A stretch of DNA of 53,408 nt from a virus. The stretch spans positions 1 through 53,408 of IMG/VR virus record IMGVR_UViG_3300027631_000028; one strand, written 5' to 3'. Position numbers and translations under genes: made by a program. The notes beneath the pieces were generated by a model. That model was not told the DNA's origin. It made no database searches and saw only the letters and a program-made list of their open reading frames with translations. This document shows, piece by piece, positions 5,610 to 44,249 of this stretch. Position 1 is the first letter of the stretch. Each line of letters starts with the position of its first letter.

Positions 5610-6148
5610 GTCGCATTAATACATTATCTTCAGCTGCTATTAAAGCTATGTTTTCGTCCGAGACGGATCAACAGCTTATTATGCTATTTACTATTTTTGA
5701 TCCTAATGGTTCTACAGATCCAGCCGCAACGACTACACCTGTTAGATTAGCAGATGGCTATATAGGTAGATTGTCAGCAACAACAGACGCAGAAGTAATA
5801 TACGGCGTAACAAGTCGTAGTAATGAATTTATATTTTTACCAATGCAACTTAATTTGCCTGCTGAGCAAGAAACAGGAGTTGGTGAGTGTTCTATTACGT
5901 TAAATTATGTAACTCCAGAAGCTATTGAACTTGTTAGAGCACACTTGTTTTCTCAAACAAAGGTACTAATAGAATTAGTATTATCTAGTACACCTAATTA
6001 TGTAGAGGCTAGTTTTTCTGAGTTTTACATAAACAATGTAACTTATAATGCTGAAGCTATTACTTTAAATCTAAGTATGGTTAGTTATAACAAAGAACCG
6101 TTCCCAAGTTTTAATTTTACACCTAGTTATTTTCCAGGATTATTCTAA
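5606..6148 (+). CDS. DUF1833-type minor tail protein (gpL position)
   Basis: This 180-residue protein lies where lambda encodes gpL. It ends in FNFTPSYFPGLF, and an FTPSYFPGLF-like tail is characteristic of the DUF1833 phage proteins. It also has the conserved core with 'FIFLPMQLNLP' and 'NYVTPEAIELVRAHL'. The likely role is tail-tip assembly joining the tube to the central fibre protein; this is inferred from gene order, not from known biochemistry. The start overlaps the previous gene by 4 nt (ATGA) and the stop overlaps the next start by one base (TAATG), so translation is probably coupled. lambda gpL carries an iron-sulfur cluster, but I see no matching cysteine motif here. Confidence 0.8.
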   Translation: MSRINTLSSAAIKAMFSSETDQQLIMLFTIFDPNGSTDPAATTTPVRLADGYIGRLSATTDAEVIYGVTSRSNEFIFLPMQLNLPAEQETGVGECSITLNYVTPEAIELVRAHLFSQTKVLIELVLSSTPNYVEASFSEFYINNVTYNAEAITLNLSMVSYNKEPFPSFNFTPSYFPGLF

Positions 6149-27345: not shown

Positions 27346-30300
27346 ATGAGTATTGCAGCTTATTTAGCAAAATTATCTGAGGGCGTTAATAGCTCAGGTA
27401 TATTAGCAACTTCTAAAGGTGGTACTGGTACTACCTCTGGAGGAGCTTTTCCTACTATTACTAGTATTAGTTATGGTGGAGATAATAATGATACTGCTAC
27501 AGATACTAGTGGTGGTAGAACCGTCACTATTACTGGTGCAAATTTTGCTGCAAATGCTACAATACTCATAAATGGTGTTGCTGCACCAGTTGTATCAGTT
27601 GTTAGCGCAAGTACAATAACATTTACTACCCCTGCTATGGCAGCGGGTACGTATGTGTTGTATATGGTTAATGCTGATGGAAGCACTGCAATTGCGGTGC
27701 CCGGTATTTCATATAGCGGAGTACCTGCTTGGTCAACGGCCGCAGGTACTGTTGCTACTATTACAGAAACAACAGCAATTAGCGCATCACTGAGTGCTAC
27801 AAGTAATAGCGCAGTTACCCTTAGCGTACTAAGTGGAACACTACCCCCTGGAGCTGTTTTTAACTCCAACGGCACAATTTCCGGAACTAGTGCAATTACA
27901 GCTAGTCCCACAACTTATACATTTACAGTACGTGCAACTGACACAGAACTACAAGATACAGATCGTCAGTTTAGTATTGTAATTAATCCTGAAATAGTAA
28001 CTTTTTCAAATCCCACAAACGGTGGTACTGTACTTGCTTACTCAAATCTTTATAATACAATTAATTTAAGCGCTATAGGTAGCGCAGGCAATGCTATATC
28101 AAGCTATAGCGCAAACACTTTACCCGCAGGACTTACACTAAGCGGTAGTACAATTACAGGAACTGCTGCCAGTGTAGGCACAAGTTCAACTACATTAACA
28201 GCAACTACTGCTAACACTAATAAAAGTACTCAAATTACTTTTAACTGGAGCGTTACTGTTAGTGGCGACTTATACTGGAAAAATACTGCTTTATTGTTGT
28301 CAGGAACTTCAACTGCGGATAGCTCTCTTAGTGATTATTTAATATTAAATAATCAGCTTGTACGTATTGGAGATACGCGTACTAGCAATTTTAATCCTTA
28401 TCAAGCAGGGTATTATTCAAATCAGTTTAATGGTTCTGGTGATTATTTAACTATACCACATAACACACAATTAAATTTATCATCTGGTGATTTTACAATT
28501 GAAGCCTGGGTATATTGGTCAGGTGCAAACGCATCGGCTGAAATCGTTAATAAAGATGGTGTTAGTGGTAGTTCTTATCCCTCATATGCAATAGCTATTG
28601 CTTCTAATAAAATAACATTTGTTGTAGGTAGTGGTAACGGTACATCTTCTATACAAACTATTACCCCAGCTTCAACAACTTTTCCTATTAATACATGGAC
28701 TCATGTAGCGGGTGTTAGATCCGGTACAACATTAACTGTATATCAGAATGGTGTTAATGTTGCATCTGCAACACAAACTAGTACTGTTACTGATGGTGGT
28801 AAAGTAGTATGTATAGGATTTCAAACTGGTCAAGCAGCCTCCTCATATTGGGGAGGTAGTATATCAAATGTTCGCATAGTAAAAGGCACAGCTGTATACA
28901 CCGCCAACTTTACGCCTTCAACAACTCCATTAACAGCAATTAGTGGTACTACTTTATTAACTTGTCAATCAAATCAGTTTAGGGATGCTGGTCCTAATAA
29001 CTTTGCAATTACAACTGCAGGTACACCTTCAATTCAACAATTTAACCCATTTGGTGTGCCTGCAACCGCTACTACAAATAATCTGTATAGCGCTTATCTT
29101 ACTAGTGCAACTGATTCAAGATTAACAGTTCCAGCAGGTACTGCTTTTGCGTACGGTACAGGAGATTTTACAGTAGAATGTTGGTTTTTTGTACCTGATA
29201 TGACGGGATCTTCTATAAGAATTATATTTTCACAAACAGTAAGTGGAACAAATTATTTCGTTATGGGTCCTCAATCATCTGGTTCGGTACTCACCGGAAA
29301 AATAACTTTTACTGGAGTAGGAAGTGGCGGTGGTACTGAGATAGTTAGTGGCTCAAATTTATTTACGGCTGGTACTTGGAATCATGCCGCAGTTTGCCGT
29401 GTAAGTGGTACAGTAACTGTATACTTAAACGGTGTTGGTGGCACACCTACCGCAAACGCTACTGATTTTTCAAACACAAGTTATGTGCCTACAATTGGTG
29501 GATACACGCATGTTTCTACTGGTTATAATATTAATGGTTATTTATCAAATTTTCGTGTTGTTAAAGGCACGGCTGTTTACACCAGTAACTTTACTCCTGC
29601 AACCGCCAACTTAACAGCAATTGCGGGTACAAGTTTATTAACTTTCCAAGACGCAACGATTAAAGACAACTCAGCTAGCGCACTTACTATTACTAATGTT
29701 GGTACTGCCCGTTTAGTTGCACAAAGTCCATTTACCCAAACAACTAGTACAATAAGTTTAAATAGCGTTGGTAGCACTTACTTTGACGGTACTGGAGACG
29801 CAGCATATATTGCTGGAGACGGTAATGTTGTAAATTTTGGCAATGGCAATTACACTGTTGAAGCTTGGATTTATACTACTACTGGTTTTTGTATTATGGA
29901 CACATGTCCTGGTGGACTTGCAACTCCTACAAACAGAATACAGTTTAATATAAATGCTGATGCTTCTGTTAGTTATATAACATATCAAGGTAATGTAACA
30001 CTTATTATGTCTGCAACAGGACTTGCTCCTTTGCGACAATGGAATCACGTAGCTTTAGTTAAGTCTAATAGCCAAACCAGAATATACGTAAATGGTGTTC
30101 AGGGCGGTAGTACTTACGCAGATACTTTAACTATGCCTTCACAAGGAAATAGACCATTTATAATGGGTAATGGTTATGATGGCGGTCAAGGCGGCACAGG
30201 TTACATTAGTAATTATCGTATTACTAAAGGTACTGCAATTTATACTACACCTTTTGCACCGCCTACTGCGCCACTAACCGCAGTTAATAGCACTCAAGCA

Positions 30301-33300
30301 TTACTTTTCCAAACTTCACAAGCACCAAATAATTCACAATTTGTTGATAATTCTTCAGCAAGCAACCCAATTACCCGTTTTGGTAATACAACTCAAGGCA
30401 CATTTGCACCGTATGGAGCTAATTGGTCAACTTACTTTGATGGTACTGGAGATTGGATAACTGTAACTGCGGGCACACAGTGGCAATTTACTGGTGATTA
30501 CACTCTTGAGGCTTGGATTTATGTTACTGTGTTAACAGATGGATTAATATTTGGCACTGGCGGTTCGGGTTCCGCTGACCAGTTTGGTTACGCATCTGAT
30601 GGTCGCTTCTATTTTGCTAATGTATTAACTGCAACTGGTCTTATTACAACAAATAATTGGATTCATGTTGCAGCTTCAAGAAGCGGTACAACGCAAAAAC
30701 TATTTATAAATGGTGTAGTTCAGTTAACATCAACTATATCAGGCACAATTGGTCAAAATTTAGCTGGGTATATTGGTAGAAGGAACGACACTTATAGTCC
30801 AGTTAACGGTTACATTTCAAATTTACGTATTGTAAACGGCACTGCTCTTTACACAGCTAATTTTATTCCACAAATCACTCCATTAACACCTGTTACAAAT
30901 ACAGTACTATTAACTTGCCAATCAGCTGGATTTGTTGATAATAGTGCAAAGAATAATGTTGTGTCAAACGTTGGTGATACAAAAACACAACGCTTTTCAC
31001 CATACGGTGCAACGATTCAAACGCCACAGACTTATAGTGGGTATTTTGATGGGTCATGGGCCAACGTCAATAGTGGTGATTATTTAGCACTTAATGGTCA
31101 AGCTAATTTTGCTTTTGGTAGTAACAATTTTACGGTTGAAATGTGGGTATATGCAACGTCATTTTCAGCAAATGTTGTGTTTTATGACAGTAGGCCCGGA
31201 AATACAAGTGGAGCTTACGGAATTTTTTATTACGATACAGCAGGAATTGTTAATTGGAATGTTAATGCTTTAACAATTACTGGAACAGCAATAACACTTA
31301 ATACTTGGAATCATTTAGCGGTTTCAAGATCAGGAACTACTACTAAATTATTTATAAATGGTGCTCAAGCTGGAACTGCAACAGATACTAATAGCTATTT
31401 AAATGGAGCACTTGCTCCAACAATTGGTACAAGTGGATATTCAAGAGGTTCAAATTCTATGCAGGGGTACATTTCAAATGTACGTGTAGTTAACGGAACA
31501 GCAGTTTACACAACAACATTTACTCCTTCAATAACCCCATTAACAGCAATAGCAAATACTCAATTATTAACTTGCCAATCAACTACATTTGTTGATAACT
31601 CAACAAACGCATTTGCTATTACCACAGTTAACGAGCCAAGACTTCGTGCGTTCAATCCATTTGGTTACACAAACACACAAGGTTCAGCATATACTCCTGC
31701 GTTATACGGTAGTTCAGCATATTTTGATGGTACTGGGGATTGGTTAACAATACCTACCAATACAAACATCTCATTTGCCAGTACAGTTGCATTTACTGTA
31801 GAATTTTGGATGTATCCTACTGCATATGCAGTCGGTGGTGGTTTTAATGATGGTCGAGCTCTAGTATCGACATCCGGTACATATCCTGAAGGTTGGCGAA
31901 TAGAAATGGGTACTGCAAATCTAATTTTGTACTCATACACTAGCGGCACTACAATCACAACTCCTATATCAATTAATACATGGACGCATGTTGCTGTTAC
32001 TCATGACGGCACGACTAGTAAACTGTACAAAAATGGTATATTAGCTGGCAGCGCAGCAACTACTTGGTCTGCCGGAGTTTCCTCACCTTTTTACATTGGT
32101 GCTTTAAATTCAGGATCATACATACTTCCTTATTTAGGTTATATAAGCGATGTTAGATTAGTTAAAGGCACAGCAATATACACCTCAAACTTCGTACCAC
32201 CACAAGCACCACTAACAGCTACAACAGCTACCACACTCCTGCTCAACATGGACAAAGGTGCTCTTGTAGATTATACCAAGTCAGTTAATCTAGAAACTGT
32301 TGCTGATACTAAGATTAATAACGAAAGTGCCTATAACGGCGGTTATTATTCAAATTATTTTGATGGTAGTGGTGATACGTTTTCTACCCCCGCAGGTCTA
32401 AGTACCGCAATGGGCACAGGTTTTGCAGGCAATATTCTTTCTTTTGAGTGCTGGGTATTTCCACAAAACCATAACTTTAATGCAAATGCACAAATGATTG
32501 CAGGAGCATATGCAGCAGTTGCAGCAAATGGACGTTGGTATATTGGTTTTGATAAAACGGCTAATGCAACTACTCAATTAATATTTGGATGGACTATCAG
32601 CAGTGGTTCACAAACAGGTGTAACAACTACCGTATTTCCTATTACTCACGGTCAGTGGAATCATATTGCTGTAACCGTTGATGCTACCACAGCAGCTAGT
32701 AGTACTGTTAAATTGTTTGCAAATGGACTATTACTAAATACATTTACAGCACAAGATTTTTCTTCACAAACAGCGTACTGGCAACCTACGCAAATAGGAG
32801 GTTGTGGTTCTACTACTTATACTTCTGAGTTTCACGGATATATTTCAAATTTCAGGATTTTAAAAGGGTCACTGGCATATACTACAAACTATACTGTGCC
32901 AACTGCTCCATTAACAGCAATTACAAACACAGTGTTATTAACTTGTCAATCAAATACTTTTAAAGATAATTCAATTGGTACTTTTGCATTAACACGTAAT
33001 GGTGATGTTTCAGTTCGTTCATTTAACCCATTTCAACGTAATACTAAAACAAGTATGTATTTTGATGGTACTGGTGATTCTTTAAAAATTCCAAGTAGTG
33101 CCCAACACGCGTTAGGTACTAGCAATTTTACTATTGAAATGTGGGCATATAATAGTTCTACAACAAATAGACTACTTTCTTATGCAACAACAAACGCACC
33201 TATTATATATTTTAATGCTTCCAATTTCTTACTTTATGAAAACTATGGTGTTGGTACTGTTCTAACAAGTTCAATTGCAGTTCCATTAAATACATGGGCG

Positions 33301-33525
33301 CATATTGCAGTATGTAGATCAAGCGGAGTTACTAAAATTTTTATAAATGGGGTAGAAGGTGCTTCCGGGGCAGATACTAATAATTGGGGCCAAAACGGCA
33401 TTTATATTGGTGTTGATGTATCCACTACTTACATGACTGGGTATATTGACGATTTAAGAATTACCAGATATGCCCGCTATACCGCCAACTTTACTCCGCC
33501 CTCAACAAAGTGGCCATCTAATTAA
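27346..33525 (+). CDS. Giant adhesin with IPT/Ig and eight LamG-like domains (paralogue 1)
   Basis: This 2059-residue protein starts with a 27-residue anchor (MSIAAYLAKLSEGVNSSG) shared with four later genes. An IPT/TIG domain follows (about 36-125, GGRTVTITGANF), then two Ig-like domains of the putative-Ig type (about 126-305; SGTLPPGAVFNSNGTISG). From about 355 to the end there are eight concanavalin A/LamG-like domains, each opening near YFDGTGDxLxIP, continuing F[TI][VI]E.WxY, and closing GYISNxRxVxGTAxYT then LLTCQSxxFxDNS. Such domains usually bind glycans, so host surface sugars are the probable target. An AAGGA ribosome site lies 7 nt before the ATG, and its paralogue follows after 9 nt. 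Confidence 0.85.
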   Translation: MSIAAYLAKLSEGVNSSGILATSKGGTGTTSGGAFPTITSISYGGDNNDTATDTSGGRTVTITGANFAANATILINGVAAPVVSVVSASTITFTTPAMAAGTYVLYMVNADGSTAIAVPGISYSGVPAWSTAAGTVATITETTAISASLSATSNSAVTLSVLSGTLPPGAVFNSNGTISGTSAITASPTTYTFTVRATDTELQDTDRQFSIVINPEIVTFSNPTNGGTVLAYSNLYNTINLSAIGSAGNAISSYSANTLPAGLTLSGSTITGTAASVGTSSTTLTATTANTNKSTQITFNWSVTVSGDLYWKNTALLLSGTSTADSSLSDYLILNNQLVRIGDTRTSNFNPYQAGYYSNQFNGSGDYLTIPHNTQLNLSSGDFTIEAWVYWSGANASAEIVNKDGVSGSSYPSYAIAIASNKITFVVGSGNGTSSIQTITPASTTFPINTWTHVAGVRSGTTLTVYQNGVNVASATQTSTVTDGGKVVCIGFQTGQAASSYWGGSISNVRIVKGTAVYTANFTPSTTPLTAISGTTLLTCQSNQFRDAGPNNFAITTAGTPSIQQFNPFGVPATATTNNLYSAYLTSATDSRLTVPAGTAFAYGTGDFTVECWFFVPDMTGSSIRIIFSQTVSGTNYFVMGPQSSGSVLTGKITFTGVGSGGGTEIVSGSNLFTAGTWNHAAVCRVSGTVTVYLNGVGGTPTANATDFSNTSYVPTIGGYTHVSTGYNINGYLSNFRVVKGTAVYTSNFTPATANLTAIAGTSLLTFQDATIKDNSASALTITNVGTARLVAQSPFTQTTSTISLNSVGSTYFDGTGDAAYIAGDGNVVNFGNGNYTVEAWIYTTTGFCIMDTCPGGLATPTNRIQFNINADASVSYITYQGNVTLIMSATGLAPLRQWNHVALVKSNSQTRIYVNGVQGGSTYADTLTMPSQGNRPFIMGNGYDGGQGGTGYISNYRITKGTAIYTTPFAPPTAPLTAVNSTQALLFQTSQAPNNSQFVDNSSASNPITRFGNTTQGTFAPYGANWSTYFDGTGDWITVTAGTQWQFTGDYTLEAWIYVTVLTDGLIFGTGGSGSADQFGYASDGRFYFANVLTATGLITTNNWIHVAASRSGTTQKLFINGVVQLTSTISGTIGQNLAGYIGRRNDTYSPVNGYISNLRIVNGTALYTANFIPQITPLTPVTNTVLLTCQSAGFVDNSAKNNVVSNVGDTKTQRFSPYGATIQTPQTYSGYFDGSWANVNSGDYLALNGQANFAFGSNNFTVEMWVYATSFSANVVFYDSRPGNTSGAYGIFYYDTAGIVNWNVNALTITGTAITLNTWNHLAVSRSGTTTKLFINGAQAGTATDTNSYLNGALAPTIGTSGYSRGSNSMQGYISNVRVVNGTAVYTTTFTPSITPLTAIANTQLLTCQSTTFVDNSTNAFAITTVNEPRLRAFNPFGYTNTQGSAYTPALYGSSAYFDGTGDWLTIPTNTNISFASTVAFTVEFWMYPTAYAVGGGFNDGRALVSTSGTYPEGWRIEMGTANLILYSYTSGTTITTPISINTWTHVAVTHDGTTSKLYKNGILAGSAATTWSAGVSSPFYIGALNSGSYILPYLGYISDVRLVKGTAIYTSNFVPPQAPLTATTATTLLLNMDKGALVDYTKSVNLETVADTKINNESAYNGGYYSNYFDGSGDTFSTPAGLSTAMGTGFAGNILSFECWVFPQNHNFNANAQMIAGAYAAVAANGRWYIGFDKTANATTQLIFGWTISSGSQTGVTTTVFPITHGQWNHIAVTVDATTAASSTVKLFANGLLLNTFTAQDFSSQTAYWQPTQIGGCGSTTYTSEFHGYISNFRILKGSLAYTTNYTVPTAPLTAITNTVLLTCQSNTFKDNSIGTFALTRNGDVSVRSFNPFQRNTKTSMYFDGTGDSLKIPSSAQHALGTSNFTIEMWAYNSSTTNRLLSYATTNAPIIYFNASNFLLYENYGVGTVLTSSIAVPLNTWAHIAVCRSSGVTKIFINGVEGASGADTNNWGQNGIYIGVDVSTTYMTGYIDDLRITRYARYTANFTPPSTKWPSN

Positions 33526-36500
33526 GGAATATCAATGAGTATCGCAAAATATTTAGCTAAATTAGCACAAGGCGTAGATGCTAGTGGTCAATTAAGTAAT
33601 ACCAAAATATCGGGGGGATATGATTCAACCCCTACTATTGCTAGTATTGCTTATCCAGGAGACGATACAGCAACTGATCCAGCTGGCGGGCAAACTATTA
33701 CCTTAACAGGTAATAACTTTGCCAATGGCGCTCAGGTTATCATTAACGGAGTAACTGCAAGTGTTGTAACAGTTGTGTCAACAACTCAGCTTACATTCAC
33801 AGCACCAGCTATTGCAGCTGGTAGCTATATATTGTATGTAGTAAACACTAATGGTGGTACTGCTATTGCGGCTCCTGGTATTCAGTATTCTGCATTACCT
33901 GTATTCTCCACAGCAGCCGGTACCTTGGGTACTTTGTATGAAACACAAGCAGTTAGTGCTATTACTACTGCTACTAGTGATTCTGCTATTACTTACTACT
34001 TACAAAGCGGAACTTTACCTCCTGGTATTACACTAAACAGTGCGTCTGGTATTATCAGCGGCAGTAGTTCTGCTACTGCCGCTTCAACTACTTATACATT
34101 TACAGTTCGTGCAACTGACGGTCAACAACAAGACGGAATTCGTCAATTTTCACTAACTATTAATCCTGACATTATTACATGGACTAATCCAACACAAGGT
34201 AGTACATTAAGTGCTTTTCAAGGCGTTGCAACAACGATTCCAGTTACAACCGCCACAGGCACAGGCACTAACGTAGCTTATTCAGCTACTAATACTCCTC
34301 CCGGCATGGCACTTGCCGGTGATATATTTACAGGCACGCCAACTACCATTGGTAATACCAGTGCTACACTAACTGGTACAACAATTGCTACCTCACGTAC
34401 TGCACAAATTAATTTTACTTGGTCTATTAGCGTACAAGGCGATTTATACTGGCCACAAACCACAGTTTTATTTCAAGGCACTGCTACAAGTGGTGTAGAT
34501 CATTTTGTGTCTGATGCTAGTAACAACAATAATTTAGTTACCATAGTAGGCGATACTCGCCCTAGCAAACAAAATCCTTATCAAGCTGGTTACTATTCCA
34601 ATCAATTTAGCTCAGGACAAACAAACTATATCCAAACAACAATCCAAGCAATGGCTGCTAATTTCACAGTAGAATGTTGGGTTTACTTAACAAGTTTACC
34701 AAACAGTGGTGTTATTATCGGACAAACTTGGGAATTATGGATTAATACTAGTAATCAAGTTGTTTACTATACACCAGCAGCAGTAAGAATAACAACATCT
34801 CTTACTGTTCCATTAAACGCATGGACACACGTAGCATTAGTGCGTAGTTCCGGTGTTGCTAAAATTTATATTAATGGTGTTGCTGATGCGGCAACTTATA
34901 CAGATTCTGGAACTGTAGGTGCTGCAGAAACTACTTATATTGGACGCGATCCCGGCGCATCAGGTGGATTTAATGGTAATATAAGTAACTTACGCATTGT
35001 AAACGGAACTGCCGTTTACACAGCTAACTTTACACCTTCAACAACGCCACTAGCCGCAATCAGTGGTACAACTCTATTAACGTGCCAAGCTAATCGTTTT
35101 GTTGATGCTGGTATAAACAATTACGCAGTTACTCGTACAGGTACACCAACCGTACAACCCTTCAACCCATTTGGCGTTCCTGCAACTGCTAACATAAACA
35201 CTAGATACAGCACGTACTTTGATGGTACAGGCGATTATATAAGTGCTACACCAGCCGCCATTGGCACCGCAGAATTTGGCATAGAAGGTTGGTTTTATAC
35301 ATCCGACGTATCTGTAGGTAAATATATTGTTTCATTGGGTTTTAATAGCAATAATAGTTTATTTTTTGCTGTACAGTCTGGTAAAGTAGAGTTTACTGTA
35401 CAAGACAATGCAGGAGCATTTCCACTTAATAATGTTAATATTGGCACACCCATTGCTAATACTTGGAACTATTTTTATGTTGGTCGCGGAGTAACTACGT
35501 CAGGAACTGCTACTTGGTACTATGGTTTAAACGGTACTGTTAGTAGTCAAGTAGCTGCTAGTCCAACATTTCCTAGCCGAAACTTTGAGGTAGGATATGC
35601 ACCCACACGTGCGTTAGGAGCTGCTTATTTTAATGGTTATATTTCAAATGTCCGCTTAACAGTTGGCAGTACACCTTATACTGCCAGTTTTACACCATCA
35701 ACCACACCATTAACAGCAGTTACAAACACTCAATTACTACTTTGCCAGAGTTCTACTCTGCGTGACAATTCCACAAACGCATCGGTGGTTACAAGTTTTG
35801 GCGACGCACGCCCTGTGGCACACAGTCCATTTACACAAACAACTAACTCAGTTGCATTAGCTACTGTAGGCAGTACCTACTTTGATGGTACTGGAGATTA
35901 TTTAACTACGGGTATTCCTGCTATTGGCACAAGTGATTTTACTGTTGAATATTACTCTTATTTGACCGCACATTCAGGACTTAACGGTGAGAATGCATAT
36001 TTTCAAACTTCAGATACAGTAGGCGGGCTTAAAACAACATATACTACTGGAATTCTGCTAACAAGATCATCCCCCGGTACCGGTCAAGTACTTTCATTAT
36101 ATATTATTGGTACTAGTATTTTTACAACATATACGCCTCCTTTAAATCAGTGGTTTCATACAGCCATTGTGCGACAAAGCGGCAGTGTACGTGTTTATGT
36201 AAATGGCGTTTTAGTTTCAACACCCACAGCTGTTGCAGGTAGTATTACAGGAACATATATTTCAATAGGTGGAGGTATAAGTACTAGTTATTTAATGACT
36301 GGTTATGTTAACGATTTTAGATTAATAAATGGTACATGTATTTATACAGCTAACTTTGACGTACCAACTCAACCACTAACAGCTGTCGCAAACACACAAT
36401 TATTAACATGCCAAACATGGCAACCCACAAACAACAGCATGGCCGTTGATAACGGACCAGGTGCATGGCTAGCTACTCGTTCAGGAAATGTCTCACAAAG

Positions 36501-39500
36501 TTCATTTAGCCCGTACGGTAGTGGACATAGCATGTATTTTAATGGCGGTGGCGGTAGTGGTTATTTATTACCTAATGGCTTATATTCAAAAACAGGTAAT
36601 GTTAACAGCGGAAGCATAAATCTTCCGGGCGCGTTTACTTTTGAGTGCTGGGTTTATTTAACTGCTGGTGGCAGACATTGTATGATGGGTAGTCCAAATG
36701 GTTGGGCTTATTCAACCGATTGGGGTATTGCCATTTTGGACACTACAAATGGAGCTAGTACTAGTTATAATCCTGGTTTTTGTTTTATACGAACAGGTAC
36801 TAGTGGATATGGTAGTAACTTTCTATATGCCACAAATTTTGGTTACCCAACACTAAATACTTGGCATCATCTTGCTATGTGTCGCGATTCAAGCAATCAA
36901 TGGCATATGTATATGGATGGTGTAAAAGGCATAAATGCTAATCTTAATTCTATTGTTCATAGTTATGTACAATATGACGCTAACAGTGGTCCAAGCGGAA
37001 CACTTGTTTTCTATCCTGCTGTAGCTAATTTAAATGGTATAATTGGTGGAGGTAACGGTACTGCAGCTCCTTCTGGTTTTAATGGTTATATCAGTGATAT
37101 GCGTTTAGTTAATGGTACTGCACTTTATACAGGTGCTTCATTAACAATGCCAACTCAGCCTCTAACACCTATTGCAGGTACAGTTATACTAACTGCTCAA
37201 GACGACAAGTTTACAAACTTTGCTGATGACAAAGGAGTTAGGTATACTCATGAATACGCTAGTGTTAATAATTTTCGTGCAGAAAAGTTTAGTAAATTTA
37301 ATACTGCAGACTCTCCAAAATTACCTATTAGTTATTCAAATTACTTTGACGGTACAGGCGATTACTTAAGTACTGCAGTATCAACAAGCACACCTGGTTG
37401 GAATCTTATGGCTCCAAGTGGTAGTGGTGGTGGTAGCATAGAAGCTTGGATTTATGTAAACAGTGCTACTAGTCGTATTATATGTGGTTGTTTAAATATT
37501 GGCGCATCTTATACTGGATGGCATCTTAGCATAAGTGCTACAGGACAACTAGCCATAAACGGATATATTGCAGGAAATAATGTACCACCTGCAATTAATT
37601 CTGGTGCTGGTTTAGTTGCCTTAAACACATGGACACATATTGCTGTTAGTTGTGTAAGTGGAGTAGTTACTTTTTATATTAATGGCGTTGCTTATAATAG
37701 CGCAAATCCAATAGGATCTACTTGGCAAATTAATAACACAGCTACTGCTACTATGGTTGGTGACGCTTATACTCCTTGGAACACACCGTTTTTAGGCTAT
37801 ATTAGTAATTTACGCATGGTTAATAATACTGCGGTATATACTGGCGCAGGACTAACAGTTCCGACGATACCACTAACAAGCACAGCAAACACAACACTGT
37901 TAACTTGTCAAGACGCTACCCTCAAAGACAATTCTCAAAATGCTTATGCCATAACGGCTTTTGGTAATGCAATGCCTGCACTAGCAAATCCATTTGGATT
38001 TACTGTAACTACTGGAACTCAATTTACTCCTCAAACCAAAGTTGGTTCAGCATTTTTTGACGGAACTGGTGATTGGTTAACTGTTCCACATAATCCCGCA
38101 CTAGATCTTAATTCAGATCGTTGGACTATTGAGTGTTGGGTTAATCCTACTGCAACTACTGAAGGCCATATTATTGGTAAACGTACAGGTGCCGGTATAT
38201 ACGGACCAGTGACTATTGCTTATAGAAATCAAAAATTACTAATACTTGGATCAAGCAATGGTTCTAGTTGGAGTTATAATGCTAGTGCAGTTGACGGCGT
38301 AACCCCAGTAACACCTGGTTGGTGGACACATATTGCTGTAGTTAAAAATGGTACAACAATTTCTTCTTATGTAAACGGTAAACTTGACCAAAACTTTACT
38401 TCTGTTCCTACATTAGTAACTAATAATCATGGACTAGCAATAGGTGCAGGTGCTACAGATGGATCATATCCTTTTGTGGGTTACATTTCAAACCTTCGTG
38501 TTATAAAAGGCGAAGCACTTTATCTTCAAGCGTTCTCTCCTCCAACTCAACCACCTGTTGCAAACAAAAACACAGTTTTACAAATGGACATGGACAAAGC
38601 ACCAATTGTTGATGCTACATCAAGTCGTCCTGCTGAAACCGTTGGTGATGCTAGATTAATTACTGAAAGTGCTTATAACACTACTTACTATTCAAATTAC
38701 TTTGATGGTACTGGTGATTACCTTGATACTCCAAGTTCTACTGCATTGGCTTTTGGTACCGGAGATTGGGAATATAGTTTTTGGTATAACGCAATATCTA
38801 CATCTGGATATTTGTTTGATACTCGCACAGGCAGTGCTACAGGTCTTACTGTTTACTATGCTTCTGGTGCATATTCGGTTTATGTAAATAGTTCCACTGT
38901 AATTACTGGTACCGATACAGCTAAAAATACTTGGCACTATCTAACTCTAAGCAAAGTATCTGGATTAACTCGTTTATTTGTTGATGGTACACAAATTGGT
39001 TCAACGTATACGGATGCAAATAACTATGTAAGTGGAACAATTCGACTTGGTTGCAGATTTACAACTATAACAGATATCCCTTTTAATGGTTGGATATCTA
39101 ATTTTAAAGTTGTTAAAGGCACTGGAGTTGCTACTCAAACGGTGCCCACTGTTCCAGCAACACCAACTACAAATACTCAACTATTAACCTGCCAATCAAA
39201 CCGTTTTATTGATAACTCGGTTAATAACCTCGCAATTACTCGTACTGGTGACGTAGTAGTCCGTTCAGTTAACCCGTTTAAACGCAATACTCAAACAAGT
39301 ATGTATTTTGATGGTACTGGTGATTACATGTACACTCCACTAAATGCTTCATATGGCATTGGTAGTGCTAAAGATTTTACTATAGAAGCGTGGGTATGTC
39401 CACTTTCAAGTGGAACAACTCGCGGAATATTTCAAGTATCTGCAACTGCTGGTGGACTGCAAGCTTCAGTATCTACTACTCTTGGTATAGGATTTGTTTC

Positions 39501-39820
39501 AACTACTGGAGTAGAGATATATGCAAATGGAACTTATTATAATACATCCACTAATAAGTTAACAGTTGGTGCATGGTCACACGTTGCACTTGTTCGGTTA
39601 AGTGGAGTAACTAAATTGTATATTAACGGTGTGCTAGAAACAAGTATAGGTACAGCAGGTTCTATCGCAGATACAACTGCTTATCCTAATACAAGTTTAG
39701 CAGTTGGTGGATACTACGGTACAAGTAATTTGTGGCATGGTTACATAGAAGACTTCCGTATAACCAAAGATGCTGCTCGTTATACGGGTACGTTTACACC
39801 TCCAGCATTTAAACTTGCTA
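28411..39820 (+). repeat. Sixteen diverged LamG-like domain repeats over two genes
   Basis: About 600-700 bp per unit, eight in each of the genes at 27346 and 33535. The most conserved stretch encodes YFDGTGD at the start and GTAVYT and LLTCQS at the end of each unit. The copies are diverged enough that no long perfect direct repeats were seen, but short shared tracts could support recombination. Confidence 0.8.
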
Positions 39821-39828
39821 ACAGATAA
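33535..39828 (+). CDS. Giant adhesin with IPT/Ig and eight LamG-like domains (paralogue 2)
   Basis: This 2097-residue protein has the same plan as its neighbour at 27346: anchor MSIAKYLAKLAQGVDASG (1-27), IPT/TIG domain (about 36-120, GGQTITLTGNNFANG), two Ig-like domains (about 120-305, SGTLPPGITLNSASGIISG), then eight LamG-like domains (about 350-2097). The LamG copies have diverged, for example domain 4 carries GGGGSGYLLPNG in place of the usual opening, and residues near 1160-1250 replace the standard linker. It looks like a tandem gene duplication with divergence of the binding faces. An AAGGA site precedes the ATG. Function as an adhesin or decoration protein is inferred from the domains. 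Confidence 0.85.
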   Translation: MSIAKYLAKLAQGVDASGQLSNTKISGGYDSTPTIASIAYPGDDTATDPAGGQTITLTGNNFANGAQVIINGVTASVVTVVSTTQLTFTAPAIAAGSYILYVVNTNGGTAIAAPGIQYSALPVFSTAAGTLGTLYETQAVSAITTATSDSAITYYLQSGTLPPGITLNSASGIISGSSSATAASTTYTFTVRATDGQQQDGIRQFSLTINPDIITWTNPTQGSTLSAFQGVATTIPVTTATGTGTNVAYSATNTPPGMALAGDIFTGTPTTIGNTSATLTGTTIATSRTAQINFTWSISVQGDLYWPQTTVLFQGTATSGVDHFVSDASNNNNLVTIVGDTRPSKQNPYQAGYYSNQFSSGQTNYIQTTIQAMAANFTVECWVYLTSLPNSGVIIGQTWELWINTSNQVVYYTPAAVRITTSLTVPLNAWTHVALVRSSGVAKIYINGVADAATYTDSGTVGAAETTYIGRDPGASGGFNGNISNLRIVNGTAVYTANFTPSTTPLAAISGTTLLTCQANRFVDAGINNYAVTRTGTPTVQPFNPFGVPATANINTRYSTYFDGTGDYISATPAAIGTAEFGIEGWFYTSDVSVGKYIVSLGFNSNNSLFFAVQSGKVEFTVQDNAGAFPLNNVNIGTPIANTWNYFYVGRGVTTSGTATWYYGLNGTVSSQVAASPTFPSRNFEVGYAPTRALGAAYFNGYISNVRLTVGSTPYTASFTPSTTPLTAVTNTQLLLCQSSTLRDNSTNASVVTSFGDARPVAHSPFTQTTNSVALATVGSTYFDGTGDYLTTGIPAIGTSDFTVEYYSYLTAHSGLNGENAYFQTSDTVGGLKTTYTTGILLTRSSPGTGQVLSLYIIGTSIFTTYTPPLNQWFHTAIVRQSGSVRVYVNGVLVSTPTAVAGSITGTYISIGGGISTSYLMTGYVNDFRLINGTCIYTANFDVPTQPLTAVANTQLLTCQTWQPTNNSMAVDNGPGAWLATRSGNVSQSSFSPYGSGHSMYFNGGGGSGYLLPNGLYSKTGNVNSGSINLPGAFTFECWVYLTAGGRHCMMGSPNGWAYSTDWGIAILDTTNGASTSYNPGFCFIRTGTSGYGSNFLYATNFGYPTLNTWHHLAMCRDSSNQWHMYMDGVKGINANLNSIVHSYVQYDANSGPSGTLVFYPAVANLNGIIGGGNGTAAPSGFNGYISDMRLVNGTALYTGASLTMPTQPLTPIAGTVILTAQDDKFTNFADDKGVRYTHEYASVNNFRAEKFSKFNTADSPKLPISYSNYFDGTGDYLSTAVSTSTPGWNLMAPSGSGGGSIEAWIYVNSATSRIICGCLNIGASYTGWHLSISATGQLAINGYIAGNNVPPAINSGAGLVALNTWTHIAVSCVSGVVTFYINGVAYNSANPIGSTWQINNTATATMVGDAYTPWNTPFLGYISNLRMVNNTAVYTGAGLTVPTIPLTSTANTTLLTCQDATLKDNSQNAYAITAFGNAMPALANPFGFTVTTGTQFTPQTKVGSAFFDGTGDWLTVPHNPALDLNSDRWTIECWVNPTATTEGHIIGKRTGAGIYGPVTIAYRNQKLLILGSSNGSSWSYNASAVDGVTPVTPGWWTHIAVVKNGTTISSYVNGKLDQNFTSVPTLVTNNHGLAIGAGATDGSYPFVGYISNLRVIKGEALYLQAFSPPTQPPVANKNTVLQMDMDKAPIVDATSSRPAETVGDARLITESAYNTTYYSNYFDGTGDYLDTPSSTALAFGTGDWEYSFWYNAISTSGYLFDTRTGSATGLTVYYASGAYSVYVNSSTVITGTDTAKNTWHYLTLSKVSGLTRLFVDGTQIGSTYTDANNYVSGTIRLGCRFTTITDIPFNGWISNFKVVKGTGVATQTVPTVPATPTTNTQLLTCQSNRFIDNSVNNLAITRTGDVVVRSVNPFKRNTQTSMYFDGTGDYMYTPLNASYGIGSAKDFTIEAWVCPLSSGTTRGIFQVSATAGGLQASVSTTLGIGFVSTTGVEIYANGTYYNTSTNKLTVGAWSHVALVRLSGVTKLYINGVLETSIGTAGSIADTTAYPNTSLAVGGYYGTSNLWHGYIEDFRITKDAARYTGTFTPPAFKLANR

Positions 39829-39837
39829 AGGGAAATT

Positions 39838-41304
39838 ATGACTCTAGCAGTAAATTTAGCAAATTTAGTCGATGCACTTGGCACAGATGGTACTATCACC
39901 GACGCAAAGTCAATAAGTGATAAGCCTAATTCTAGTACTGGGTACTTTGATTTACCTTCGGGGACTACTGGGCAACGCCCAGGGTCTCCTAACACAGGTA
40001 TGGTTCGTCATAACTCTAGCCTAGGACTTATAGAAACTTGGAATGGTACTACTTGGACAGGTCTAGGGGGTAGTGCTACAATCAGTAGTACTGCTCCTGC
40101 AAGTCCTACTGATGGTGCATTTTGGTTAAATTCAGAAACAGGCGATTTATATACCTACGGACCTGGTGGTTGGATATTAGCGGGTGGTTTTGGCGGAAGT
40201 TACAATGATTTAACTAATAAACCAGCACTTTCAACAGTAGCTACTACTGGTAGTTACGCTGATTTAATAAATAAACCAGCAATTACACCTGCAGCAGTTA
40301 GTGATCAAGCAAATACAAGCACAGGGTATTTTGGAATGCCCACAGGTACAACAGCACAACGTCCAGTATCTCCAGCTAATGGTTTTACTAGAATAAATAC
40401 TACTACAAACTATTTAGAAGTATACTATAACGGTTCATGGGTAAATATGCAGTATATAGGATTAATTTCAGCTACTTACAGCGGAGCAACTTTAAGTTAT
40501 AGTGGAAACTATATTTTATTAACTTATACTGGCACTACAGGCTCATTTACTCCAACAGTTGTTCCTACAGGAGCAACTGTTGATTATGTAATTGTAGGGG
40601 GCGGCGGTGCTGGTGGTATTGACCAAGGCGGTGGAGGTGGTGCTGGTGGATATTTAACTGGAAGCATAGCAGTTGCTCAACAAGCTTACCCTATAACTAT
40701 TGGTGGAGTAGCTACTTCTATTGCTTCGCAGGTTTTTGTAAATGGTAATCCTTCAACTGCATTTGGATTAACTGCAGTTGGTGGCGGAGGTGGTGCAGGT
40801 ATTAGTTACTCTAGTAGAACTGGTAACTCAGGCGGCTCTGGTGGAGGGGCTTCTTCTGCTTGGAGTTCAGGAGTAGTAGGATTAGGTGGTGCTGCAAGTC
40901 CAAGTGGTCAAGGAAATGCAGGCGGAAATGGCTCAACTGGAGGCAGTAACTCTTCCGGAGGCGGTGGCGGTGGTGCAGGTGCTGCTGGTGCTTCGGCTGT
41001 TGGAAATGCCGCTGGTCTAGGAGGAGTTGGAATAGCAAATCCTTTTGCAGGGTCAACTGCAGGTCAACTAGTTAATGGTACTTATTACCTTGCAGGAGGT
41101 GGTGGTGGTGGTACTTATCAAGGAACTAGAGCTGCTGGAGGCAATGGAGGAGGAGGCTCTGGCGGTGGACCTAGTACGGTATTTGATGGTGGTAGCGGTG
41201 CTCTTAACACTGGTGGTGGTGGAGGTGGTGGTGTTGGTACTAGTGCTGGTACTGTTGGTAGTGGCGGGTCAGGTGTAGTAATAATTAGATATAGGTACCA
41301 ATAA
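39838..41304 (+). CDS. Glycine-rich tail adhesin 1
   Basis: This 488-residue protein opens with the anchor MTLAVNLANLVDALGTDG. Two copies of a 50-residue unit with STGYF[DG][LM]P[ST]GTT[GA]QRP follow (about 25-75 and 155-205), with a fibre linker LTNKPALSTVA between. Residues about 250-480 are extremely Gly-rich (GGGGAGG, GGGGGAGAAG), ending GVVIIRYRYQ. Gly-rich domains of this type in phage adhesins can form sandwiches of polyglycine-II helices with variable loops that contact receptors (T2/S16 gp38 is the known example). That fold is an inference here. An AGGGA site precedes the ATG; the next gene starts 1 nt after its stop. Confidence 0.82.
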   Translation: MTLAVNLANLVDALGTDGTITDAKSISDKPNSSTGYFDLPSGTTGQRPGSPNTGMVRHNSSLGLIETWNGTTWTGLGGSATISSTAPASPTDGAFWLNSETGDLYTYGPGGWILAGGFGGSYNDLTNKPALSTVATTGSYADLINKPAITPAAVSDQANTSTGYFGMPTGTTAQRPVSPANGFTRINTTTNYLEVYYNGSWVNMQYIGLISATYSGATLSYSGNYILLTYTGTTGSFTPTVVPTGATVDYVIVGGGGAGGIDQGGGGGAGGYLTGSIAVAQQAYPITIGGVATSIASQVFVNGNPSTAFGLTAVGGGGGAGISYSSRTGNSGGSGGGASSAWSSGVVGLGGAASPSGQGNAGGNGSTGGSNSSGGGGGGAGAAGASAVGNAAGLGGVGIANPFAGSTAGQLVNGTYYLAGGGGGGTYQGTRAAGGNGGGGSGGGPSTVFDGGSGALNTGGGGGGGVGTSAGTVGSGGSGVVIIRYRYQ

Positions 41305-41305
41305 C

Positions 41306-42646
41306 ATGGCAATACAATTTCCTTCAAGCCCAACGTTAAACCAGTTATATACTTATAATAGTATTAACTGGACTTATAATGGTACAGGCTGGACAAAAGC
41401 AAGCACTGTTCTTGCCCCAGATAAAATAAGTGATCAAACTAATACTAGTACTGGTTATTTTGATCTGCCAACAGGTACAACTGCTCAACGACCTGTAACT
41501 GCAAACACAGGTATGGTTCGTTTTAATACTACTATAGGTGCTTTAGAACAATATAACGGTACTGCTTGGATAACAATAGGTGGTACAGTTAGTTTTGATA
41601 ATCTTCAGTTAACTGGAGATTACGTAGGATTACCATCAGGAACAACAGCAACGCGACCAGGTTCACCAGCCATAGGTTATACTCGCATAAATACTACTGA
41701 CAGTACATTGGAAGTATACTATAACGGGGCATGGAGTGTTGTTAATTATTTTGGGTATCTTACAGCAAACAGTAACGCTATAGTAACTACTAGCGGTAAT
41801 TTTAAAATACATACTTTTTTAACTAGTGGATCGTTTTTTGTTACTGGTGCTTCTGCTGTATCTGCTGTAGAATATTTAGTTGTTGCAGGCGGTGGTGGTG
41901 GTGGATCTGATATGGGTGGTGGTGGTGGTGCCGGTGGATACTTAGCTGCTGCAGGATTAGTACTTAATACTGGTGCATATGCTATTACAGTAGGCGGTGG
42001 TGGAGTAGGAGGTCCTGCAGGTACTTCTCAAGTACGAGGCGTTAATGGTACTCCTAGTTCTATTATTTACACTGGTGGTACAAATATTGCTACTGCCATT
42101 GGTGGTGGTGGTGGCGGATCCGGATATGGAACGGCTAACGTAGCAGGCACTGGCGGCAGTGGCGGTGGTTCAGCCTCAAGTGGTAGTGGAGCAACTCCTG
42201 GACTAGGAACAGTTGGTCAAGGCAATAATGGTTCTGTTGGTGCAGGAAATTACTACCCTGGTGGTGGCGGTGGTGCAGGTGCTGCTGGTGCGGTTAACCC
42301 AGCTAATGGTGGCGTTGGCGTACTAAACACAATTAATGGATCAAGCTTATACTGGGCTGGTGGTGGTGGTGGTGCTGGATACTCAAACATTGCTGGTAAC
42401 GGCGGATTAGGTGGTGGTGGTGGTGGTGGCCCTAAAGTTTCTGGTGGCGGTTTAGGTGGTGGTCAAGCCCTAAACACAGGTTTAGATGGTACTGTTGGTT
42501 CACTAGTTTCTCAAACAAACGTACCTGGTGGAGCAGGTGGTGCTAACACCGGTGGCGGTGGCGGAGGTGGTGCACACTATAACTCAAACAACTACGGTGG
42601 TACAGGTGGTAGCGGCATAGTAATAATTAAATATAGGTTTCAATAA
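41306..42646 (+). CDS. Glycine-rich tail adhesin 2
   Basis: This 446-residue protein starts differently from its paralogues (AIQFPSSPTLNQLYTYNSIN), an N-terminus known from other phage fibres. It then carries two of the STGYFDLPTGTTAQRP-type units (about 47-95 and 105-150, the second as LTGDYVGLPSGTTATRP). Residues about 195-440 are Gly-rich with runs such as GGGGGG and GAGAAGAV, ending IVIIKYRFQ. Its stop overlaps the next start (TAATG), so translation is probably coupled. It probably belongs to the same adhesin set as the genes at 39838 and 43018, with a different attachment end. Confidence 0.82.
   Translation: MAIQFPSSPTLNQLYTYNSINWTYNGTGWTKASTVLAPDKISDQTNTSTGYFDLPTGTTAQRPVTANTGMVRFNTTIGALEQYNGTAWITIGGTVSFDNLQLTGDYVGLPSGTTATRPGSPAIGYTRINTTDSTLEVYYNGAWSVVNYFGYLTANSNAIVTTSGNFKIHTFLTSGSFFVTGASAVSAVEYLVVAGGGGGGSDMGGGGGAGGYLAAAGLVLNTGAYAITVGGGGVGGPAGTSQVRGVNGTPSSIIYTGGTNIATAIGGGGGGSGYGTANVAGTGGSGGGSASSGSGATPGLGTVGQGNNGSVGAGNYYPGGGGGAGAAGAVNPANGGVGVLNTINGSSLYWAGGGGGAGYSNIAGNGGLGGGGGGGPKVSGGGLGGGQALNTGLDGTVGSLVSQTNVPGGAGGANTGGGGGGGAHYNSNNYGGTGGSGIVIIKYRFQ
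42410..42430 (+). repeat. In-frame GGT triplet run in adhesin 2
   Basis: Six GGT codons followed by GGC encode seven glycines. A similar run of six GGT lies at 46082-46099 in the Calx-beta adhesin. Slippage would change loop length without a frameshift. Confidence 0.85.
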
Positions 42647-43008
42647 TGAGTCATTTTGCACAAATAAATGAAAATAACGTAGTCACACAAGTTATAGTAG
42701 CAGAACAAGAATTTATAGATTCTAATGCTGTTGGTGATCCAGCTAAATGGATTCAAACAAGCTATAACACACATGGTGGAATACATCGCACAGGCGGAAC
42801 TCCTCTGCGTAAAAATTATGCAGGTATAGGTTATACTTATGACGTTAATCGCGATGCTTTTATATCGCCTCGACCGTTTGCATCATGGACACTAGAAGAA
42901 GCTACTTGCTTGTGGATTCCTCCAGTTCTTTACCCACAAACTGGTGGACCTTATAAGTGGAACGAAACTAGTCAAGCTTGGGAGCAATTTACTCCTATTA
43001 CGGAATAA
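42646..43008 (+). CDS. Conserved small protein of phage fibre regions
   Basis: This 120-residue protein belongs, by recall, to a group common beside tail-fibre genes in aquatic phages: it opens SHFAQINENNVVTQVIV, then has WIQTSYNTHGG, RKNYAGIGYTYD and RDAFISPRPFASW. No known function, signal peptide or catalytic motif. It is translated from an overlapping start (TAATG) after adhesin 2 and precedes adhesin 3. A role in fibre assembly or as a fibre chaperone fits the position but is speculative. Confidence 0.8.
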   Translation: MSHFAQINENNVVTQVIVAEQEFIDSNAVGDPAKWIQTSYNTHGGIHRTGGTPLRKNYAGIGYTYDVNRDAFISPRPFASWTLEEATCLWIPPVLYPQTGGPYKWNETSQAWEQFTPITE

Positions 43009-43017
43009 GGAAACACA

Positions 43018-44055
43018 ATGAGTACAGCAACAAGATTAACAAAATTAGCCGAAGGGTTAGATTCTAACGGAGTATTGTCTGCTGAAAAGGGTGGAACAGG
43101 AGCAACTACATTTAGTGGTGGAGCCTCAACTCCTAGTGCAGTTAGTGATCAAGCAAACACAAGTACAGGTTATTTTGATTTACCTGTAGGTACTACTGGA
43201 CAACGTCCTGCTTCACCAGGTGAAGGTAATTTTCGTATTAATAGTACTACATCAGCTTTAGAAGTATATTACCTAGGTTTCTGGAGTACTATTAAATCAT
43301 TAGGTCTTTCATTAGCAGCAGGCGGTACTTCTGTTGCAACTGACGGTAATTACAAAGTTCATACGTTTACTACTGGTGGTAATTTTGTAGTTTCTCAATC
43401 TGCATCTGCATTTGAAGTATTATTAGTTGCTGGGGGTGGTGGTGGAGCAAATGATGTTGGCGGCGGTGGAGGAGCAGGAGGTTTAATTTATCAAAGTGCT
43501 TTGGAATTACCTGTTGCTACTTATGTTATTGGTGTTGGCACAGGTGGTGCAGGTAGTGGTAGTACAAGCGGAAGAGCTGGTAACGGACTTAATACTACAG
43601 GATTTAGTTTAACTGCAATAGGCGGTGGCGGTGGTGCTAACTATACTGGATCGGGCAGCGTGGTTACCGGTGCTACTGGTGGATCCGGCGGGGGCGGTGT
43701 GGGATATACGTGGCCTTCAAATGGAGGTGCCGGCACCTCGGGACAAGGTTTTCCCGGAGGTAATGGTGCAGGCACAACTTCTGGAACAGGTGGTGGTGGT
43801 GGTGGTGCTACAGGGGCTGGTGTCAATGGTATTTCAAATGTTACTGGATTTGCTGCAGGTGGAACAGGATTTACCTCACTAATCTCAGGAACAAGTACTG
43901 TTTACGCAACAGGCGGTAAAGGTGGTGGAGATAATTGGACAGGAGCTATATCATCTACACCAAATACTGGTAACGGTGGAGATGGTCAGGGTATTAACGC
44001 ATCAGGCGGTGATGGTGCTGGTGGTATAGTAATAATTAGATATAGGTTTCAATAA
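43018..44055 (+). CDS. Glycine-rich tail adhesin 3
   Basis: This 345-residue protein has the anchor STATRLTKLAEGLDSNG (like the LamG genes), one STGYFDLPVGTTGQRP unit (about 48-90), and a Gly-rich body (about 135-340; GGGGGANDVGGGGGAGG) ending IVIIRYRFQ. The final 30 or so bases are nearly identical to those of the genes at 39838 and 41306. An AAGGAAA site precedes the ATG. It is the shortest of the three and probably has the same receptor-contact role. Confidence 0.82.
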   Translation: MSTATRLTKLAEGLDSNGVLSAEKGGTGATTFSGGASTPSAVSDQANTSTGYFDLPVGTTGQRPASPGEGNFRINSTTSALEVYYLGFWSTIKSLGLSLAAGGTSVATDGNYKVHTFTTGGNFVVSQSASAFEVLLVAGGGGGANDVGGGGGAGGLIYQSALELPVATYVIGVGTGGAGSGSTSGRAGNGLNTTGFSLTAIGGGGGANYTGSGSVVTGATGGSGGGGVGYTWPSNGGAGTSGQGFPGGNGAGTTSGTGGGGGGATGAGVNGISNVTGFAAGGTGFTSLISGTSTVYATGGKGGGDNWTGAISSTPNTGNGGDGQGINASGGDGAGGIVIIRYRFQ

Positions 44056-44057
44056 TC

Positions 44058-44249
44058 ATGGGTATAGCACGATATTTATCAAAACTAGGTTCTGTGTTAA
44101 GCGCAGAAGGTATAGTACCCGTTTCTAAGAGCGGTGCAACTTGGGATGCATATGCTACGGGTACTAACACTAATTTGGGTAATAATACTGGTTGGCGTTT
44201 TGTTTTAGCAACTTCTCCAGTTTCGGGTCAATTCATGGCTTTCTTTTAA
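44058..44249 (+). CDS. Short protein with adhesin anchor, possibly a truncated fibre
   Basis: This 63-residue product begins MGIARYLSKLGSVLSAEG, matching the anchor of the LamG and Gly-rich adhesins, but ends after a short segment (TGWRFVLATSPVSGQFMAFF) with no adhesin body. It follows adhesin 3 after 2 nt, with only a weak ribosome site. It may be a remnant left by recombination that removed a body, or a small stand-alone cap that competes for the same attachment site. The reading frame has no interruption. Confidence 0.55.
   Translation: MGIARYLSKLGSVLSAEGIVPVSKSGATWDAYATGTNTNLGNNTGWRFVLATSPVSGQFMAFF

What the first reader, a model, noticed from the sequence alone, without database searches (positions are those of the whole stretch)
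27346..44249. Shared N-terminal anchor on five genes with different bodies
Seen: the genes at 27346, 33535, 39838, 43018 and 44058 open with M-x-x-A-x-x-L-x-x-L-x(3)-[LV]-x(3)-G-x-[IL], about 25 residues, then have unrelated bodies. The genes at 17505 and 19406 share a second opening, TIKIKxSS...GELA. Inference: two attachment codes, each used by several exchangeable adhesins.
Basis: partly seen in the sequence, partly recalled or inferred. Interest (0 to 1): 0.65.

Follow-up and report, generated by a model that had tools for sequence, protein, structure and literature searches.

The report
Shared docking peptide on swappable adhesins
A phage from an environmental sample opens five of its adhesin genes with the same 24-residue peptide, a small helix that looks like a common plug, and the adhesive bodies behind it have been swapped in related phages at a short glycine linker; this is a compact, multi-copy version of a docking trick already known from other phages.

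Summary
The motif is real. A profile trained without this genome or its near relative finds four of the five genes at 34-47 bits (shuffled best 8.9). The fifth, 39838, is weak but above every non-module N-terminus (11.1 vs 0.9 bits). The bodies are not all unrelated: 27346/33535 are paralogues, 39838/43018 share a body with 41306, which has another opening. In 23 viral contigs, 44 module genes carry 15 body clusters; module identity between clusters is 45% against 9% for random body segments. At DNA level module and body are inherited separately, with crossovers in the GGTG-coding linker just behind residue 24. Gene 44058 is an in-frame fusion of the module to the last ~38 residues of what is the next gene in a relative. 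Best reading: an N-terminal docking peptide for secondary tail adhesins, working like the 7-29-residue conserved peptides of branched receptor-binding protein systems. Docking is inferred; no partner was identified. The second opening is Mtd_N-like and sits on fixed, not exchanged, genes. There are at least five opening types, not two.

The parts
27346..27417 (+). module copy 1 (MSIAAYLAKLSEGVNSSGILATSK) of the 2059-aa TIG/Ig/LamG adhesin gene 27346-33525
   Evidence: 35.2 bits with an independent profile; AF2 helix 3-11, low pLDDT
27418..27429 (+). GGTG linker, the exchange point in relatives
   Evidence: change-over at this linker in G009/G022/G021/G018 and G010/G012
27430..33525 (+). body: TIG-like and Ig-like domains, then about 8 LamG (ConA-like lectin) domains
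   Evidence: Pfam Laminin_G_3 4.8e-128, 8 stretches; AF2 and Foldseek Ig/cadherin-like matches
33535..33606 (+). module copy 2 (MSIAKYLAKLAQGVDASGQLSNTK); lacks GGTG
   Evidence: 33.7 bits
33607..39828 (+). body, paralogue of the 27346 body
   Evidence: Laminin_G_3 2.3e-101; alignment A4
39838..39909 (+). module copy 3, divergent (MTLAVNLANLVDALGTDGTITDAK)
   Evidence: 11.1 bits N-anchored vs best non-module 0.9; orthologue 17.3
39910..41304 (+). body: GYFDLP domain plus glycine-rich domain
   Evidence: Pfam Gly_rich_2, phrog_2295
41306..42646 (+). same GYFDLP and glycine-rich body with a different opening (MAIQFPSSPTLNQLYTYNSINWTYNGTGW); natural control
   Evidence: phrog_2295 1.4e-60; same body domain behind many openings in viral contigs
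43018..43089 (+). module copy 4 (MSTATRLTKLAEGLDSNGVLSAEK)
   Evidence: 38.0 bits
43090..43101 (+). GGTG linker
   Evidence: sequence; G010/G012 relatives diverge behind it
43102..44055 (+). body: GYFDLP and glycine-rich domain
   Evidence: Gly_rich_2 1.1e-15
44058..44129 (+). module copy 5 (MGIARYLSKLGSVLSAEGIVPVSK), 93% nt identical over 115 bp to the G014:21078 gene start
   Evidence: 47.5 bits; BLASTN
44130..44249 (+). body remnant: about 38 residues matching the C-terminus of the next gene in G014 (731 aa), fused in frame right behind the module
   Evidence: 171 bp at 84% nt starting at 44133; about 2.66 kb absent relative to G014
17505..17585 (+). second opening, copy 1 (TIKIKRSS...GELA), Mtd_N-like
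   Evidence: 29.9 bits with a profile of orthologues; E 0.005 to 19406
19406..19525 (+). second opening, copy 2 (TIKIKNSS...GELAINTADGRIYFK), Mtd_N-like; 1664-aa collagen-like gene with five repeated beta domains
   Evidence: 64.2 bits; relatives hit PF18454; repeats
6148..10731 (+). tail-tip J-like protein (NlpC/P60, GpJ FNIII): places the genes in the tail region of a siphophage
   Evidence: present in G010, G016, G018, G021, not detected in the podophage-like contigs

Best explanation
The first 24 residues are a virion-docking peptide: a short amphipathic helix (residues ~2-14, hydrophobic at 3, 7, 10, 14), a G18 turn and a flexible GGTG linker. It is carried by several secondary tail adhesins of one phage, so that bodies of different make-up (LamG lectin arrays, glycine-rich tips, collagen-like rods) can all plug into equivalent sites on the tail. 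Bodies are exchanged by recombination in the linker-coding DNA, which leaves the plug intact. Shown here: homology of the module, N-terminal-only location, association with tail/adhesin genes, separate inheritance of module and body, breakpoints at the linker. Inferred: helix formation, docking, the identity of the socket, and that all five genes are expressed and reach the virion.
For: Independent profile hits. 44 module genes in 23 contigs, 15 body clusters, module identity 45% between clusters vs 9%. BLASTP between a podophage-like contig (G013) and the siphophage group returns only the module, residues 1-21, 67% identity, E 5e-5. Exchange: G009:8884 and G022:536 share a body (mostly 93-100% nt) but have different modules, while G022 and G021/G018 share the module (77-97% nt) and not the body; G010/G012 share the module and diverge behind it; 44058 is a module-body fusion. 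The single-copy relatives lie close behind tail-fibre genes in podophage-like contigs. A look-alike opening (MSKARxLADLLDxxGDV) lies 1-3 genes behind the tail fibre in cultured marine phages of Pelagibacter and Roseobacter, the place of second receptor-binding proteins. AF2 puts a helix at 3-11 and no fold until residue 37. Short conserved N-terminal docking peptides are an established model in KP32, KP34, K1-5 and G7C-type systems (PMC6872550).
Against: No socket identified: no T4gp10-like domain was recognised by sequence; 6148 and 24418 are not universal; podophage-like G013 shares no other protein with the siphophage group at BLAST level, so a common socket would have to be diverged or the sockets differ. 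AF2 confidence for the helix is low (pLDDT 47-58, monomer only). No virion proteomics. The module has no Pfam, PHROG or PDB match.
Confidence: 0.62

Rival explanations
1. The module is not a plug but a homotypic N-terminal trimerisation or capping helix that sets the register of each fibre; attachment to the virion is done by something else.
For: Hydrophobic residues at 3, 7, 10, 14 follow a 4-3-4 coiled-coil spacing; the module occurs in phages of different build with no other shared protein, as expected of a self-acting element.
Against: About 12 residues is very short for a stable coiled coil; A4, K9 and G18, outside the hydrophobic core, are also strongly conserved, which suggests contacts with a partner; other openings replace it on the same body, so it is probably not needed for that body to fold.
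Confidence: 0.22
2. The conserved opening is mainly a DNA-level recombination handle (start codon region plus linker) that keeps genes exchangeable; the peptide itself has no specific role.
For: Change-overs cluster at the start codon and in the GGTG-coding DNA; within the window the same residue uses the same codon more often than codon usage predicts (55 of 87 vs 37.4), which is also expected from common descent.
Against: The pattern of near-invariant residues (A4, L7, L10, G18) persists between unrelated phages at 45% identity, past usable DNA homology, which needs selection on the protein.
Confidence: 0.07
3. The module is a recognition tag for a fibre-assembly chaperone rather than a structural plug; the small phrog_7759 protein (42646) could be such a chaperone.
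For: A 42646-type gene lies near module genes in several contigs (G000, G010, G012, G016, G021, G001, G008).
Against: That gene is not seen in several module-bearing contigs and also lies beside fibres with other openings; no sequence evidence of chaperone function.
Confidence: 0.06

Closest known systems
'Conserved peptide' of second receptor-binding proteins in branched systems (KP32: 29 aa; KP34: MALxxLV; K1-5/SP6: 7 and 11 residues; G7C gp63.1), PMC6872550
   Same: Short conserved N-terminal peptide on receptor-binding proteins with variable bodies; gene placed behind the main fibre in the podophage-like members; conserved hydrophobic residues.
   Different: No T4gp10-like socket recognised here; up to five genes of one genome share one peptide; bodies are LamG, glycine-rich and collagen-like rather than depolymerases; different sequence; a GGTG exchange point follows the peptide.
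CBA120 TSP1-4 and RaK2 head domains D1/D2 (PMC10253068)
   Same: Several receptor-binding proteins of one virion share homologous N-terminal assembly elements.
   Different: D1/D2 are folded domains; here it is a 24-residue, probably helical peptide with no sequence relation found.
Mtd_N, PF18454 (second opening)
   Same: Relatives aligned to the 19406 opening and a neighbouring gene in sister phages match PF18454.
   Different: The window's own two copies do not reach the Pfam threshold; no tropism-switching cassette was looked for.
Domain mosaicism in phage receptor-binding proteins (PMC10684548)
   Same: Fragment sharing between otherwise unrelated fibres by ongoing recombination.
   Different: Here the shared fragment is only 24 residues and is re-used within one genome.

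Membership tests
Conserved-peptide second receptor-binding proteins (branched systems) | Short conserved peptide at the extreme N-terminus | tested here: met
   24 residues, starting at residue 1 in nearly all 44 genes (one called gene starts two residues earlier)
Conserved-peptide second receptor-binding proteins (branched systems) | Variable body behind the peptide | tested here: met
   15 body clusters
Conserved-peptide second receptor-binding proteins (branched systems) | Gene lies with or behind the anchor fibre gene | tested here: met
   behind PHROG-annotated tail fibres in G007, G011, G013; in the tail adhesin region in the window group
Conserved-peptide second receptor-binding proteins (branched systems) | T4gp10-like socket domain in a partner | tested here: inconclusive
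   No Pfam hit to such a domain in 6148, 10741, 16637, 17230, 24418, 44270, 44774 or 17505, 19406. A phrog_677 match in 19406 (residues 924-1033) covers a segment that reads as cupredoxin-like. Profile-profile or fold tests of these proteins were not done.
Conserved-peptide second receptor-binding proteins (branched systems) | Physical docking of the peptide to the virion | not testable with these tools
   No complex prediction or proteomics available
T7 gp17-type anchor fibres | N-terminal anchor domain of about 150 residues | tested here: not met
   Module proteins have no such Pfam/PHROG match at the N-terminus
Mtd_N (PF18454), for the 17505/19406 opening | Match to the Pfam model | tested here: inconclusive
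   Window copies: no hit; aligned relative L092 26.4 bits (cut-off 26.3); sister gene in G018 5.1e-13

The most novel reading that the evidence does not exclude
One universal socket accepts any module-bearing adhesin, so virions from a single genome carry mixed sets of adhesins (up to five kinds) that compete for the same sites, giving within-clone diversity of host recognition.
Probability: 0.18. Interest if true: 0.7.

Novelty: new variant of a known kind. Interest (0 to 1): 0.42.

Why it matters
If the docking reading holds, a 24-residue helix plus GGTG linker is a very small natural adaptor for phage adhesins, is re-used several times in one genome, and comes with its own exchange point. 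It also gives a sequence handle for finding adhesin genes in uncultured phages whose bodies have no annotation: the module has no Pfam or PHROG entry.

Tried and rejected
tblastn of single 35-residue modules in 50,697 phage records: no related match; the query is too short for this to prove absence. 6148 and 24418 as universal sockets: rejected. phrog_677 hit in 19406 as a T4gp10-like socket: rejected because the segment reads as cupredoxin-like (a judgement from its sequence). Number of repeated beta domains in 19406-type genes against number of module genes (5/5, 5/4, 8/4, 3/2, 3/2, 3/1): suggestive, but only six related genomes, so not a test. A regular-expression search for a fibre signature upstream of the look-alike opening found almost nothing (1 of 51); the expression is unvalidated and was dropped. 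The Curvibacter phage with the nearest tail tip has no module in the 43 kb read. Fold prediction of the second opening: pLDDT 62, not used for a fold claim.
Full report
What was checked. The window is a 53.4-kb viral record encoding a tape measure, two small tail genes, a lambda J-like tail tip (6148: NlpC/P60, GpJ FNIII, Phage-tail_3), a long run of adhesin-like genes, then a glycosyltransferase and small genes that include an endolysin-like one (the tape-measure, small-tail and endolysin labels are read from sequence and gene order).

Is the motif more than chance? A profile was trained on 25 modules from other contigs, leaving out the window and its near relative. It scores 44058, 43018, 27346 and 33535 at 47.5, 38.0, 35.2 and 33.7 bits; the best score in 20 rounds of shuffled window ORFs is 8.9. 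39838 reaches 5.4 bits locally. With N-terminus-anchored scoring it reaches 11.1 bits; the best non-module gene reaches 0.9, in a set of 682 N-termini that also holds the module genes. The training set was itself gathered with DNA patterns modelled on the window modules, so the test is independent of the window's sequences but not of the motif. Without any training, BLASTP between an otherwise unrelated podophage-like contig (G013) and the window's group finds exactly residues 1-21 of the module (67% identity, E 5e-5) and nothing else; G013 was, however, also picked by that motif.

Bodies. The claim of unrelated bodies needs correction. 27346 and 33535 are paralogues: after the module come TIG-like and Ig-like domains, then about eight LamG domains (the TIG label is my reading, Foldseek gives generic Ig/cadherin-like matches). 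39838 and 43018 share a GYFDLP-type domain and a glycine-rich tip, and so does 41306, which lacks the module and opens with MAIQFPSSPTLNQLYTYNSINWTYNGTGW. The same GYFDLP domain is found behind many different openings in other viral contigs, including proteins that start like T7-type fibres. 44058 is a 63-residue gene.

Spread. Two DNA patterns found the module in about two dozen viral contigs. Gene calls on 23 records give 44 module genes, up to five per genome. They fall into 15 body clusters; module identity between clusters averages 45% against 9% for random body segments. Two strict patterns find none in 84,980 bacterial and archaeal genomes, which shows rarity at that strictness only. 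There are two groups: siphophages like the window, with 1-5 copies in a variable region between conserved flanks (87-aa gene and two Mtd_N-like genes on one side, glycosyltransferase and lysis-type genes on the other), and mostly podophage-like contigs with a single MSLARYLSKL copy close behind a tail-fibre gene. G011 is a single-copy, siphophage-like exception.

Exchange. Nucleotide comparisons show module and body inherited separately. G009:8884 and G022:536 share the body (mostly 93-100% identity) but have unlike modules and upstream DNA. G022 and G021 or G018 share the module (77-97%) and diverge behind the linker. G010 and G012 share the MSTASRL module (87-97%) and diverge behind it. The change-over lies in the GGTG-coding stretch. 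In the window itself, 44058 consists of a module 93% identical to the start of G014:21078 joined in frame to a segment 84% identical to the end of the following gene in G014; about 2.66 kb is missing between them and the joint falls at codon 24/25. Whether the window lost DNA or G014 gained it is not known. These are metagenome assemblies; chimeras are possible for any single case, less so for all of them together.

What the module looks like. Positions 1, 4, 7, 10 and 18 are nearly invariant (M, A, L, L, G); 3, 14 and 20 are hydrophobic. The helical hydrophobic moment exceeds shuffles clearly for two of the five (33535, 44058: p 0.001, 0.004) and marginally for three (0.03-0.07). AF2 on the first 310 residues of 27346 gives a helix at 3-11 with low confidence and no fold until residue 37. 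A look-alike opening, M[ST]KARxLADLLDxxGDV, occurs once per contig in 79 loci and in cultured Pelagibacter and Roseobacter phages, one to three genes behind the tail fibre. It scores near zero against the module profile, so it is an analogue or a very distant relative, not a demonstrated member.

How it most likely works. The known precedent is the short conserved peptide on second receptor-binding proteins, thought to dock on a T4gp10-like domain of the first (KP32 29 residues, KP34 MALxxLV, K1-5 seven and eleven; PMC6872550). Several receptor-binding proteins of one virion sharing an N-terminal assembly element also has a precedent in CBA120 and RaK2 (PMC10253068). By analogy the module is a plug and the GGTG linker a hinge and exchange point. 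No socket was found: 6148 is limited to the siphophage group, 24418 occurs in three records, and no T4gp10-like domain was recognised by sequence. The repeated beta domains of the collagen-like gene 19406 (five copies) are a candidate worth testing, no more.

The second opening. 17505 and 19406 share TIKIKxSS...GELA weakly with each other (E 0.005), but each is clearly conserved in orthologues. Relatives of the 19406 opening match Mtd_N, PF18454, and a gene directly behind it in G018 matches at 5e-13. The two genes keep their place in every relative that covers the site, so they look like fixed parts of the tail rather than exchanged adhesins.

Verdict. A real, re-used N-terminal module with natural body exchange; docking is the best but unproven function. 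New variant of a known kind.

Noticed in passing
window 19406-24400: Collagen-like 1664-aa gene with five copies of a ~60-residue beta domain (FTGNGTTTxFTIxxGYTTDSVLV...) and one segment that reads as cupredoxin-like (residues ~924-1033); relatives carry 3-8 copies of the beta domain.
   Followed up: partly
window 42646-43008: Small phrog_7759 protein that recurs beside adhesin genes in many of these contigs and in the Methylophilales phage Melnitz; possible fibre-assembly factor.
   Followed up: partly
window 41306, 44270, 44774: Further recurrent openings in the same region: MAIxFPxNPTLNQTYTYNSxTW, MTLIVQNTLDPxL (or MTTLVKAATIESSL), MPLSFSSGxSKxxGF.
   Followed up: partly
window 46485-47531: 348-aa glycosyltransferase (phrog_13126, 1.2e-98) bounding the variable adhesin region in nearly all relatives.
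   Followed up: no
window 17505-19358: Long run of GNVTGNVTGN-type repeats inside the first Mtd_N-like gene.
   Followed up: no
L071 8149: Unannotated phage zth2-2 carries MSKARNLARL... on the same GYFDLP-type body.
   Followed up: partly
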